Assembly (NCBI GenBank): GCA_017443345.1
Contig: JAFSNR010000031.1
Location: 1 to 44,266, forward strand
DNA: 44,266 nucleotides
From: Prevotella sp.
Lineage (GTDB): Bacteria > Bacteroidota > Bacteroidia > Bacteroidales > Bacteroidaceae
Direction of reading: 5' to 3'
The notes beneath the pieces are model-generated. The model did not search any database and was not told where the DNA came from. It saw only the letters and a program-made list of their open reading frames with translations. Positions 140 through 29,184 of this stretch are shown here, piece after piece. The translations under genes and the position numbers were made by a program. Every line of letters starts with the position of its first letter. Position 1 is the first letter of the stretch.

Positions 140-170
140 CTAGTTGTTCTAGTTTTTCTAGATATTCTAG
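140..170. repeat. CTAG 9-bp array A, in 23S-5S spacer
   Basis: CTAG occurs at 140, 149, 158 and 167, spacing exactly 9 bp, with unrelated bases between. It lies in the transcribed spacer between 23S and 5S rRNA, so it would be part of the primary rRNA transcript and removed during processing. Confidence 0.9.
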
Positions 171-180
171 ATCGATTTAT

Positions 181-290
181 CAGGTGGTTATTGCAGCGGG
201 GTCCCACCTCTTCCCATTCCGAACAGAGAAGTTAAGCCCGCCTGCGCCGATGGTACTGCAATGCAATGCGGGAGAGTAGGAAGCCGCCAT
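181..290 (+). rRNA. rrf: 5S rRNA
   Basis: The sequence has the standard 5S features: the block around 199-215 followed by CCATTCCGAACAGAGAAGTT and the closing GGGAGAGTAGG near 270-280. The ends pair (AGGTGG-like start, GCCGCC-like end). It follows the 23S end and is followed by a hairpin terminator, completing the rrn operon. End positions are approximate to a few bases. Confidence 0.93.
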
Positions 291-303
291 CTTTATTAAA
301 GAA

Positions 304-337
304 GAGCCTCGAAGATACAATATCTTCGGGGCTTTTT
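304..337 (+). terminator. rrn operon intrinsic terminator
   Basis: An inverted repeat (AGCCTCGAAGATA, 3-base loop, TATCTTCGGGGCT) is followed by TTTTT just after 5S rRNA. This is a textbook Rho-independent terminator for the rrn transcript. Confidence 0.88.
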
Positions 338-349
338 CGTTATATACAT

Positions 350-1465
350 ATGCAATGGACAGATAGGATTCGACAAGTCAAGATACTTTTGGTAATAGCG
401 GCTGTGATTATCGCTGTTACCTCTTTGCTCGTTTCCCATTATTTGGTTAAGGATCTTTCGAACGAGGAGCGTAAGAAAATGGAGGTGTGGGCAGAGGCTC
501 TTCACGCTTTGAGTCATGCTGATGAGAACACCGATCTCTCCTTGGTTCTCGATGTGATGCAAGGTAATACCACGATTCCAGTGATAGTACTGAATGAGAA
601 TGGTGAGATAGATGACTATCGGAATATCACTGACACGCTTGATCTGAAGGCCTATGCCAAACGTATGCAACAGTCAGGCGACACCATTGTAGTGGGTAGT
701 CAGATTGTATGTTATGACGAATCGCTCCTGTTGAAACGTCTCTCTCAATACCCCTATTGGCAGCTTGGTGTTGTCATGATCTTTGTTGTGGTGGCCATCT
801 TTGCTTTATTGGCCTCGAAGAAGGCGGAACAGAATAAAGTCTGGGTAGGATTGTCAAAAGAAACTGCCCATCAGTTGGGTACCCCCATCTCCAGTCTGAT
901 GGCTTGGGTGGAGATCCTTAAGGAGAACCATCCCGAAGATGATCTCATCCCTGAGTTAGATAAGGATGTCAAGCGGTTAGAACGTATTGCAGAACGTTTC
1001 TCCAAGATTGGTTCCCTGCCAGAGCCCAAAGAAGGTTCTATGAACGATGTGTTGAATCATGTTGTCGATTATATGCGTCGTCGTACTTCCAACAAGGTAG
1101 AGATGGTCTGTCATGTTCCAGAACAGTCTGTGATTGTCAAGATGAATTCCTCTTTGTTCGAGTGGGTTGTGGAGAATCTCTGTAAGAACGCCGTTGATGC
1201 CATAGAGGGTAGCGGGCGGATTGATTTGTCGTTGCGCGAAGAAGGTAGTAAGGTCGTCCTTGAAGTGAAGGATACCGGCAAGGGCATCCGCAAGAAAGAC
1301 GTTAAGAATGTCTTTACCCCAGGTTTCACCACGAAGCAGCGTGGTTGGGGCCTCGGTCTCTCGTTGGCAAAACGTATTGTGGAAGAATACCATAACGGCC
1401 GTATTTTTGTCAAATCGTCGGAGTTGGGTAAAGGTACGACCTTCCGTGTCGAACTTCCTCGGTAA
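350..1465 (+). CDS. Membrane sensor histidine kinase (orphan)
   Basis: This is a membrane histidine kinase of 371 aa. Residues 11-33 and about 137-155 are membrane segments enclosing a roughly 100-residue extracytoplasmic sensor region with no domain I recognise. The H-box AHQLGTPISSL puts the phospho-acceptor at His174. The ATP-binding domain has an N box (ENLCKNAVDAIEG), G1 (DTGKGI) and G2 (GWGLGLSLAKRI). The open frame extends upstream to an ATG at 266, but that lies inside 5S rRNA and the terminator, so I chose ATG 350. No response regulator is adjacent, so its partner is unknown. Only 12 bp separate the rrn terminator from the start and I see no TAnnTTTG promoter there, so expression may depend on rrn read-through (inference). 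Confidence 0.9.
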   Translation: MQWTDRIRQVKILLVIAAVIIAVTSLLVSHYLVKDLSNEERKKMEVWAEALHALSHADENTDLSLVLDVMQGNTTIPVIVLNENGEIDDYRNITDTLDLKAYAKRMQQSGDTIVVGSQIVCYDESLLLKRLSQYPYWQLGVVMIFVVVAIFALLASKKAEQNKVWVGLSKETAHQLGTPISSLMAWVEILKENHPEDDLIPELDKDVKRLERIAERFSKIGSLPEPKEGSMNDVLNHVVDYMRRRTSNKVEMVCHVPEQSVIVKMNSSLFEWVVENLCKNAVDAIEGSGRIDLSLREEGSKVVLEVKDTGKGIRKKDVKNVFTPGFTTKQRGWGLGLSLAKRIVEEYHNGRIFVKSSELGKGTTFRVELPR

Positions 1466-1568
1466 GAAGTGAAAACTGCACATTTTGGGGTTGAAATGTG
1501 TAATATAATGCTTTGAATATCACGGAATTTGCTTTAAAATGATAAAAAAAACAAATAAGCGCTCCTTA

Positions 1569-1592
1569 TTTGAAAAAAAGTTTGTACCTTTG
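1569..1592 (+). promoter_or_regulatory. Promoter of the yceD-rpmF-fabH cluster
   Basis: TACCTTTG at 1585-1592 fits the Bacteroidota -7 element TAnnTTTG. A TTTG at 1569-1572 is closer than the usual 19-21 bp, so the -33 element is uncertain. The predicted transcript would start near 1599, about 12 nt before ATG 1611. This favours 1611 over the in-frame ATG at 1539. Confidence 0.7.
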
Positions 1593-27471: not shown

Positions 27472-27474
27472 AGT

Positions 27475-28239
27475 TTACTTGTTTTTTGTGATGATTTCGT
27501 TAGCTAGTGCCAGGTGGTTCTTCGCTCCAGTGGAGTCGGCATCGTAGAGGATGACGGGCAGTCCGTGGCTGGGTGCCTCGGAGAGTTTCACGTTACGCTG
27601 GATGACGGTCTTGAACACGAGTTCCTGGAAGTGGCGCTTCACCTCGTCGTAGATCTGGTTGGCCAGTCGCAGACGACTGTCGTACATCGTCAGCAGGAAA
27701 CCCTCGATCTCGAGCTGGGGGTTCAGCTTGTGCTTGATGATGCGGATGGTGTTGAGCAGCTTCGAGATACCCTCGAGGGCGAAGTACTCGCACTGCACGG
27801 GGATGATCACGGAGTCGGCTGCTGTGAGCGAGTTGACGGTGATGAGGCCCAGTGAGGGCGAACAGTCGATGAGGATATAGTCGTATTCGCTGCGGATGGG
27901 TTCGAGGATCCTGCCAATGACCTTCTCACGATCGTTGAGGTTCAGCATCTCGATCTCTGCACCCACGAGATCGATGTGACTTGGAATCACGTCGAGCCCG
28001 TCGATATCGGTGGTGTAGATGGCGTCGCGCACGTCGGCCTTGTTGATGATGCACTCATATATCGAACATTCCACTTCTGAGATGTCAACGCCCAATCCGC
28101 TGGAGGCGTTGGCCTGGGGGTCAGCATCGACCACGAGAACCGACTTCTCGAGTGTGGCCAGGGAGGCTGCCAAGTTGATGGTGGTTGTGGTCTTGCCTAC
28201 GCCACCTTTTTGGTTTGCTAATGCAATAATCTTTCCCAT
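27475..28239 (-). CDS. parA: Chromosome partition ATPase ParA
   Basis: This 254-aa Walker ATPase of the ParA/Soj family has the deviant Walker A KGGVGKTTTTINLAASLA and a Walker B-like YILIDCSPSLG. It has no N-terminal HTH, so it is the chromosomal (Soj-like) type. It works with ParB to separate replicated origins. A -7 element lies 41 bp upstream and is divergent from surE. parA, parB, the DUF5683 gene and mltD are closely packed on one strand. Confidence 0.97.
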   Translation of the reverse strand: MGKIIALANQKGGVGKTTTTINLAASLATLEKSVLVVDADPQANASSGLGVDISEVECSIYECIINKADVRDAIYTTDIDGLDVIPSHIDLVGAEIEMLNLNDREKVIGRILEPIRSEYDYILIDCSPSLGLITVNSLTAADSVIIPVQCEYFALEGISKLLNTIRIIKHKLNPQLEIEGFLLTMYDSRLRLANQIYDEVKRHFQELVFKTVIQRNVKLSEAPSHGLPVILYDADSTGAKNHLALANEIITKNK

Positions 28240-28279
28240 TTGTTTGTTTCTATCTTGATAAAAATAAGAAATTTGGGCA

Positions 28280-28287
28280 CAAAGTTA
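28280..28287 (-). promoter_or_regulatory. parAB promoter -7 element
   Basis: On the minus strand TAACTTTG is present. No clear -33 TTTG is seen, as the upstream region is AATTAAGGGTTAAG-like repeat. Confidence 0.6.
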
Positions 28288-28330
28288 CAAAATTATTAAG
28301 AATTAAGGGTTAAGAATTAAGAGATTTTTG

Positions 28331-28338
28331 TAACTTTG
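28331..28338 (+). promoter_or_regulatory. surE promoter -7 element
   Basis: TAACTTTG lies 22 bp before ATG 28360. It overlaps the ATG at 28336 of the open frame, so 28360 is the better start. The -33 element is unclear. Confidence 0.65.
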
Positions 28339-28359
28339 CACGCAAATCGTTGTTATTTT

Positions 28360-29184
28360 ATGGAAATTAAACGACCTTTATTACTTATTTCCAATGATGA
28401 CGGCTATCAGGCGAAGGGTATCCGAGAATTGGTGGAGATGGTATTTGATCTGGGCGATGTGCTGGTCTGTGCCCCTGATTCGGCACGCAGTGGCTTTGCC
28501 TGTGCCTTCTCCGCGACAACCCCACTGACGCTCGTCTGTCGTCAGAAATATACGGCTGCTTCTGGGGCACATGTCGAGATCTGGTCGTGCAACGGCACGC
28601 CTGTCGACTGTGTGAAGATGGCCCTGGCAGAGCTCTGCCCGAGGAAGCCCGATATGGTCATTGGTGGCATTAACCATGGCGATAACGGTTCGGTGAACAC
28701 CCACTATAGTGGAACGATGGGTGTGGTAGTGGAGGGTTGTATGAAGTATATCCCCTCTGTGGCCTTCTCGCTGTGCGACCATCGCGACGATGCCGATTTC
28801 GAGCCTTTAAGACCCCTGATACGACAGATTACCGAGCGCGTCTTGAAAGAGGGCCTACCACTGGGCGTGTGCCTGAATGTGAACTTCCCGTTGGTGGAGG
28901 CTAGTAGTTCTAGTAGTCCTAGTAGTCCTAGTTATAGGGGCGTGCGTGTCTGTAGGATGGCGAAGGGCACCTGGGGCAATGAGGTGACGAAGTGCCATCA
29001 CCCCCGTGGTTACGACTACTGGTGGATGGTGGGCAACTATACGAACGACGAGCCCGAGGCCGAGGATACCGACAACTGGGCCCTCACTCACGGTTACGTT
29101 GCCATCACCCCCACTCAGATCGATGTCACAGCCTACTCAGCTATGGATCAAATCTCCGAATGGTTTAAAAGTAATCAACTCTAA
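28360..29184 (+). CDS. surE: 5'/3'-nucleotidase SurE
   Basis: This is a 274-aa metal-dependent nucleotidase. The N-terminal Asp pair in LISNDDGYQAKGI and the later GINHGDNGSVNTHYSGTMGV (metal and substrate residues) are intact. It dephosphorylates nucleoside monophosphates. A CTAG array inserts ASSSSSPSSPSYRG just after the NFP motif, where related proteins go straight to the K/R-G-V/I-strand. Start 28360 was chosen from the promoter. The stop TAA is inside a TCTAAAC array. It is followed 29 bp later by lpxB. Confidence 0.95.
   Translation: MEIKRPLLLISNDDGYQAKGIRELVEMVFDLGDVLVCAPDSARSGFACAFSATTPLTLVCRQKYTAASGAHVEIWSCNGTPVDCVKMALAELCPRKPDMVIGGINHGDNGSVNTHYSGTMGVVVEGCMKYIPSVAFSLCDHRDDADFEPLRPLIRQITERVLKEGLPLGVCLNVNFPLVEASSSSSPSSPSYRGVRVCRMAKGTWGNEVTKCHHPRGYDYWWMVGNYTNDEPEAEDTDNWALTHGYVAITPTQIDVTAYSAMDQISEWFKSNQL
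28901..28931. repeat. CTAG 9-bp array K, in frame in surE
   Basis: CTAG lies at 28901, 28910, 28919 and 28928. It is read as (A/S/P)-S-S, a Ser/Pro-rich insert. It is the last array of the family in the window. Confidence 0.95.

What the first reader, a model, noticed from the sequence alone, without database searches (positions are those of the whole stretch)
140..28931. Eleven dispersed arrays of CTAG at exact 9-bp spacing (invariant CTAGT, variable NNNN)
Fifty-three CTAG sites fall in 11 arrays (start points 140, 3776, 4297, 5695, 12167, 13202, 14196, 16882, 18610, 19204, 28901), with one slip or decayed unit at most. The conserved part is CTAG, nearly always with T next; the other four bases differ from unit to unit. 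Simple slippage would copy the whole unit, so this pattern points to selection or a process acting on CTAG(T) at a fixed phase. CTAG is normally a rare word in bacteria. Candidate roles: binding site of a nucleoid or condensation protein, DNA methylation target, or product of an unknown array-building mechanism. None of these is shown. I know of no description.
Basis: seen in the sequence. Interest (0 to 1): 0.92.

Follow-up and report, generated by a model that had tools for sequence, protein, structure and literature searches.

The report
Helix-bundle genes with own repeat arrays
The CTAG repeats in this bacterium look like one dialect of a wider, seemingly undescribed system: genes for a poorly understood helical protein sit beside arrays of a short DNA word, and arrays of that word also turn up elsewhere in the genome, even inside essential genes.

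Summary
In detail: 53 CTAG words in 11 arrays at 9-bp spacing; 200 shuffles gave no array. 46 of 120 genus genomes match the three-unit pattern. New is a gene: the longest array starts at the stop codon of an S23-type four-helix-bundle (4HB) gene (window 16954-17610). Of 100 such genes, 78 have a fixed-period array within 100 bp, against 29 of 186 other genes. The repeated word differs between 4HB clades (CTAG, CTATAG, TCCGG, TCNGA, TCGA and others) and follows the 4HB tree (20 changes, 51 when shuffled). Genomes with a TCNGA- or CTATAG-type 4HB also carry more arrays of that word away from the gene. For CTAG this link is weak, and nine array-rich genomes show no 4HB match: the main evidence against. 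My reading is a REPIN-RAYT-like arrangement with an unrelated protein: a 4HB protein and its cognate arrays, spread into tolerant places (loops of Era, AlaRS and SurE, signal peptides, spacers, rRNA leader). Recognition and spreading by the protein are inferred, not shown. Nine literature searches found no description.

The parts
140..170 (.). CTAG array, 4 units, just upstream of 5S rRNA (180-292)
3776..3815 (.). CTAG array, 5 units, in frame inside era; relatives have none, longer arrays, relics, or other short inserts at this site
4297..4336 (.). CTAG array, 4 units and one decayed, from the end of era into the era-der gap
5695..5734 (.). CTAG array, 5 units, in frame (L-V-x) near the N-terminus of a small protein; signal peptide is an inference
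12167..12188 (.). CTAG array, 3 units, non-coding, beside a tRNA (12073-12154, minus strand)
13202..13241 (.). CTAG array, 5 units, in frame near the N-terminus of an S41 peptidase gene (minus strand)
14196..14226 (.). CTAG array, 4 units, in frame near the C-terminus of a gyrase/topoisomerase IV subunit A gene (minus strand)
16882..16957 (.). CTAG array, 9 units, the longest; its last CTAG contains the stop codon of the 4HB gene
16954..17610 (-). four-helix-bundle (S23-type) suffix-domain gene, 218 aa, the only match in this genome apart from none other listed
18610..18658 (.). CTAG array, 6 units, in frame inside alaS, site 1
19204..19234 (.). CTAG array, 4 units, in frame inside alaS, site 2; at this site L259 and L278 carry a CCCCTAA..TTAGGGG palindrome, L255 and L258 an identical other insert
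28901..28931 (.). CTAG array, 4 units, in frame inside surE

Best explanation
Each S23-type 4HB gene and the short-period array beside it form a pair. The protein, or its complex, recognises the repeated core word in its own array, and arrays of that word are seeded and kept elsewhere in the same genome at places that tolerate inserts. CTAG at 9 bp is one dialect; CTATAG, TCCGG, TCNGA and TCGA (8 bp) are others. Shown: the arrays beside the genes, the match between word and 4HB clade, the genome-wide link for two words, presence and absence of gene plus array between relatives. Inferred: that the protein binds the array (as DNA or as RNA), that it helps arrays to arise or grow, and that arrays outlive the gene where no gene is found.
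For: Beside the genes: 81 of 100 4HB genes have a run of 4 or more within 200 bp, 0 of 98 shuffles; 7 of the 100 had been picked for their arrays, so 74 of 93 without them. 78 of 100 within 100 bp against 29 of 186 control genes, p 9e-26. In runs of 5 or more the period is 9 bp in 54 of 67, 10 in 6, 8 in 6, 6 in 1. Word follows clade: 20 changes against 51.2 shuffled on a tree of 76 proteins, 0 of 200 as low; TCGA, TCCGG and ATGGGC types each one branch. Elsewhere in the genome, matches near 4HB genes removed: TCNGA 6 of 7 genomes with the type have 5 or more, 12 of 113 without, p 3e-5; CTATAG 5 of 8 against 10 of 112, p 7e-4. Spacer dialect of the gene's array fits its own genome best in 4 of 5 cases, the fifth split. 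Close relatives: 3 of 3 with a 4HB between the topoisomerase gene and alaS have two or more arrays at the der and alaS loci, 0 of 26 without (own genome not counted, G285 left out). That interval is 962 and 945 bp with 4HB and array (window, L253) and 119-603 bp in the 17 relatives without where it could be measured. The 13 TCGA-type proteins end in a topoisomerase-type zinc ribbon (PF01396, E 9e-10 for one scanned; 12 by pattern and one by eye).
Against: CTAG itself is the weakest case: away from 4HB genes, 8 of 24 against 20 of 96 at 5 or more, p 0.28; 15 of 24 against 28 of 96 at 1 or more, p 0.004. Nine genomes with 5 or more CTAG matches have no 4HB match (G010, G018, G031, G035, G050, G074, G094, G110, G112), G010 being 99% complete in 3 contigs. 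CTATAG-rich G019, G036, G038 and G063 lack a CTATAG-type 4HB among those fetched. 34 of 113 4HB genes got no named word. The 10-bp CTAG and the CTAATC types do not cluster on the tree. Word and clade would also agree if arrays merely travelled with the gene. Genomes are not independent. No binding or activity was measured.
Confidence: 0.6

Rival explanations
1. The arrays are made and kept by something else (another protein, a methylase, a repair or replication habit), and 4HB genes merely settle in arrays as harmless places and are then inherited with them.
For: Array-rich genomes without a 4HB match; in G010 the CTAG arrays lie between 7-bp repeats in opposite orientation.
Against: The word changes with the 4HB clade, the link reaches arrays away from the gene for two words, and the spacer dialect is shared.
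Confidence: 0.25
2. Sites of a nucleoid or regulatory DNA-binding protein under selection, with the 4HB protein as that binder; no spreading mechanism is needed.
For: Core kept (184 of 189) with spacers free; mostly palindromic words; exact spacing in coding and non-coding places alike. The 9-bp distance also equals the distance of the two HU/IHF kinks, which is recalled and not from a call.
Against: 23 of 37 arrays lie inside coding sequence, and close relatives lack them altogether.
Confidence: 0.35
3. Structure in RNA or single-stranded DNA is what is kept: palindromic words at a fixed period fold into a ladder of short stems.
For: 12 arrays fold with z from -0.5 to -10.7; 4HB flanks fold better than control flanks, medians -3.5 and -2.1, p 3e-5.
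Against: The excess is modest: z of -3 or lower in 62 of 113 against 98 of 269, and it follows trivially from palindromic words; some words are not palindromic.
Confidence: 0.25
4. Ordinary minisatellites from replication slippage.
For: Neighbouring spacers are somewhat more alike (54% against 38%); some arrays show 18-bp alternation.
Against: Shuffles give none; spacers vary while the core does not; 9 of 12 loci from other bacteria show one or two spacer types, but 76 Bacteroidales arrays have 76% distinct spacers on average.
Confidence: 0.07

Closest known systems
REPIN-RAYT systems (PMC3116915, passages seen)
   Same: A gene flanked by its own repeat; each gene type distinctive; the repeats dispersed through the same genome; dialects differ
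   Different: RAYTs are Y1 transposases and REPs are extragenic palindromes; here the protein is an S23-type helix bundle with no known enzyme activity, the repeats are 8-10 bp tandem units, and 23 of 37 own-genome arrays are inside genes
23S rRNA intervening sequences with an S23 gene (PMC4990558, passages seen)
   Same: Same protein family; a tolerated insert; in Coxiella two to three heptamer repeats precede the S23 gene, in varying number; its function is called unknown
   Different: Those inserts lie in 23S rRNA and are cut out by RNase III; the genes here lie between protein genes and their words are dispersed
Avd of diversity-generating retroelements
Tandem boxes of MetJ, TrpR and omega-type repressors (recalled)
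   Same: Short tandem boxes, in part palindromic, bound by protein arrays
   Different: Unrelated proteins; nothing tested here

Membership tests
S23 / four-helix-bundle protein family | family profile match | tested here: met
   TIGR04258 64.3 bits (cut-off 40) and TIGR02436 35.1 (24); PF05635 31.0 is under its cut-off 33.8
S23 / four-helix-bundle protein family | S23 fold | tested here: met
REPIN-RAYT | gene flanked by its own repeat type | tested here: met
REPIN-RAYT | same repeat dispersed in the genomes that hold the gene type | tested here: inconclusive
   strong for TCNGA and CTATAG, weak for CTAG; other words not searched genome-wide
REPIN-RAYT | Y1 (HUH) transposase gene | tested here: not met
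   the window gene matches only S23/4HB families
REPIN-RAYT | extragenic palindromic repeats | tested here: not met
   23 of 37 own-genome arrays are inside coding sequence and are tandem 9-bp units
23S rRNA intervening sequence | insert lies inside the 23S rRNA gene | tested here: not met
   the window gene lies between the gyrase/topoisomerase A gene and alaS
Diversity-generating retroelement | reverse transcriptase with template and variable repeats, A-directed changes | not tested
   no search was made
Diversity-generating retroelement | Avd-like accessory protein | tested here: inconclusive
Slippage minisatellite | whole unit copied, all positions alike | tested here: not met
   core 184 of 189, spacers 38-54% identical
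Restriction-modification or methylation target | methylated CTAG or a CTAG-specific methylase | not testable with these tools
   no methylation data; no family model for that specificity was used

The most novel reading that the evidence does not exclude
S23-type helix-bundle proteins drive a large class of selfish, protein-specific repeat arrays: each protein clade writes and maintains its own short word at a fixed 8-10 bp period across its host genome, including in frame inside essential genes, and the word evolves with the protein.
Probability: 0.45. Interest if true: 0.95.

Novelty: categorically new. Interest (0 to 1): 0.85.

Why it matters
S23-type proteins have been known since rRNA intervening sequences were described, yet one paper seen here still calls their function unknown (PMC4990558, passages). 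A gene that sits beside a repeat word, a word that changes with the gene's clade, and the same word elsewhere in the genome give that family a concrete and testable role. If the protein does seed arrays, it is a new way for a genome to gain inserts in frame inside essential proteins, and it offers many natural protein-word pairs for working out how a helix bundle reads a sequence.

Tried and rejected
Array position on the chromosome: G010's arrays crowd into about 1.52-1.77 Mb of a 1.98 Mb contig, but parB lies at 1.18 Mb there, not among them, and sampled GC skew was too noisy to place the origin. In the one-contig genome G351 arrays are spread more widely. No domain rule is claimed. ParB/parS: no parS-like site with up to 3 mismatches in the window; not followed. 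Snap-back copying that inverts spacers: set aside by eye, because CTAGT keeps one orientation within an array; not tested formally. Phage origin: 4HB protein in the phages collection, no match; in viral contigs none confirmed; the array pattern did match many viral contigs (120 stretches, capped), which were not analysed. One plasmid record, Prevotella nigrescens NZ_CP082843.1, has a 4HB gene with four CTAG units after it. Stop codon as the first array unit: true in the window, but only 4 of 21 CTAG-type genes have the stop inside a CTAG and 3 of those keep the 9-bp phase, so it is no rule. Hairpin folding: a modest excess only. PDB by single sequence: no hit. An Avd match is within the range of unrelated bundles.

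Papers: searches were made, nine in all. PMC3116915 and PMC4990558: passages seen. PMC3733652, PMC4596501 and the other listed papers: search listing and start of abstract only. HU/IHF kink distance, MetJ, TrpR and omega repressors: recalled, nothing seen.

Rows dropped: 12 loci set aside by title as not Bacteroidales; G285 (alaS not assembled); 34 unlabelled and 3 of 79 labelled proteins (stop inside or under 150 aa) before the tree. Not every place listed was fetched: 110 stretches, 113 genes.
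Full report
THE OBSERVATION. 200 dinucleotide shuffles gave no run of three or more. In 37 arrays of the own genome's fetched stretches, 184 of 189 phased cores are intact, while spacers are 54% identical between neighbours and 38% between arrays. CTAG is scarce elsewhere, 0.44 per kb outside arrays in the same 134,561 bases. 23 arrays lie inside open reading frames and 14 outside; in frame, CTAG never takes the phase that would make TAG a stop (84 in one phase, 30 in the other, 0 in the third). 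The 9-bp spacing therefore holds where no reading frame demands it.

HOW WIDE. 46 of 120 genomes of the genus match CTAGTN4CTAGTN4CTAG; the reversed control pattern is nearly empty. Twelve loci I set aside by title as not Bacteroidales mostly have one or two spacer types (9 of 12), as slippage gives; three have three or four (L055, L105, L117). 76 arrays of the other loci have 76% distinct spacers on average.

WHERE THEY SIT. Era, Der, SurE and gyrase/topoisomerase A are named, AlaRS and the S41 peptidase. At the era site relatives carry no insert, longer CTAG arrays, relics, or other short inserts, among them 9-bp repeats of other words by eye in L221 and L224. AlaRS has two such sites. One array lies just upstream of 5S rRNA. 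In G351 the same array was seen 14 bp before 16S rRNA in one copy and about 17 bp before it in another; the two further copies were not inspected.

THE GENE. The longest array ends in the stop codon of a 218-aa 4HB gene. In every one of the 12 loci where I first found such a gene, an array lay within about 130 bp of the match; most of these loci had been fetched for their arrays. I then fetched 4HB genes by protein match instead: 66 of 120 genus genomes have one at E 0.001 or better. Of 100 genes (7 of them picked earlier for arrays) 81 have a run of four or more equal 4-mers at a fixed period within 200 bp, against 0 of 98 shuffles. Within 100 bp it is 78 of 100, against 29 of 186 control genes, p 9e-26; the controls include array-bearing genomes.

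MANY WORDS, ONE ANATOMY. The word differs from gene to gene: CTAG (21 genes), TCGA at 8 bp (13), CTATAG (8), TCNGA (7), ATAAG (7), TCCGG (6), CTAG at 10 bp (4) and smaller groups; 34 of 113 got no label. Most of the larger words are palindromic, several smaller ones are not. On a tree of 76 proteins the word changes 20 times, against 51.2 when shuffled and 0 of 200 as low. TCGA, TCCGG and ATGGGC are each one branch; 10-bp CTAG and CTAATC do not cluster. Inheritance of gene and array together would also give this agreement, so the test away from the gene matters more.

AWAY FROM THE GENE. I counted TCAGA and CTATAG triples in the same 120 genomes after I had typed most genes. With matches near 4HB genes taken out, 6 of 7 TCNGA-type genomes have five or more, against 12 of 113 (p 3e-5); for CTATAG 5 of 8 against 10 of 112 (p 7e-4). 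For CTAG it is 8 of 24 against 20 of 96 (p 0.28), or 15 of 24 against 28 of 96 at one or more (p 0.004). The genomes are related, so the p values are generous. Spacer dialects of the gene's array fit the own genome's dispersed arrays best in 4 of 5 cases; the fifth (G062) is split with G103.

GAIN AND LOSS. Between the topoisomerase gene and alaS the interval is 962 bp in the window and 945 in L253, both with 4HB and array, and 119-603 bp in the 17 relatives without 4HB where it could be measured. Among 30 relatives, the three with a 4HB there have two or more CTAG arrays at the der and alaS loci and none of 26 others has (G285 not scored). These are few and related.

MECHANISM. Most likely the 4HB protein recognises its word and arrays of it are seeded and kept in the same genome, much as REPs are around a RAYT gene (PMC3116915, passages). 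Steps shown: anatomy, word-clade agreement, the link for two words, gain and loss. Steps inferred: recognition, seeding, persistence after loss of the gene. Arrays fold as ladders of short stems (12 arrays, z -0.5 to -10.7), and 4HB flanks fold somewhat better than control flanks, so RNA or single-stranded DNA may be what is read.

WHAT SPEAKS AGAINST IT. CTAG, the word of the finding, is the weakest case, and nine CTAG-rich genomes show no 4HB match, one of them 99% complete in three contigs. Either the gene was lost there or something else makes CTAG arrays. In G010 the arrays are set between 7-bp repeats in opposite orientation, a composite I cannot explain.

NOVELTY. It works like REPIN-RAYT but fails that family's protein and repeat criteria, and it is not a 23S rRNA intervening sequence. 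A Coxiella paper notes heptamer repeats before an S23 gene (PMC4990558, passages), the only published hint I met. Nine searches found no description; subscription journals and preprints are not in that library.

Noticed in passing
window 3369-3400, 6093-6127, 13985-14016, 29177-29208: Four arrays of 7-bp units, a second class of short repeats; 7-bp runs also turn up in relatives.
   Followed up: partly
L162 and L163 (G010): CTAG arrays set between AGAGTTG-type 7-bp repeats in opposite orientation, so the whole could fold as one hairpin.
   Followed up: no
L204, reverse strand 1224-1494; L259 and L278 at alaS site 2: A 271-bp insert with CCCCCTAA..TTAGGGGG inverted ends and a short open frame in the era-der gap; related palindromes in frame inside alaS. 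Protein not identified.
   Followed up: partly
L255 and L258 at alaS site 2: An identical insert of about 33 bp in two species, with no CTAG.
   Followed up: no
window 30306-30427: 15 copies of an 8-bp unit GAGAAAAT.
   Followed up: no
window 35228-36039: 258-bp tandem repeat, 3.1 copies, inside a 1204-aa open frame.
   Followed up: no
window 26542-28239: parB and a ParA-like gene (below cut-offs) with no parS-like site in the window at 3 mismatches.
   Followed up: partly
L248 and L249 (G351): CTAG array in the leader just before 16S rRNA.
   Followed up: partly
L482 to L489 and L505 to L509: A 4HB subfamily with a C-terminal topoisomerase-type zinc ribbon and mostly 8-bp TCGA arrays.
   Followed up: partly
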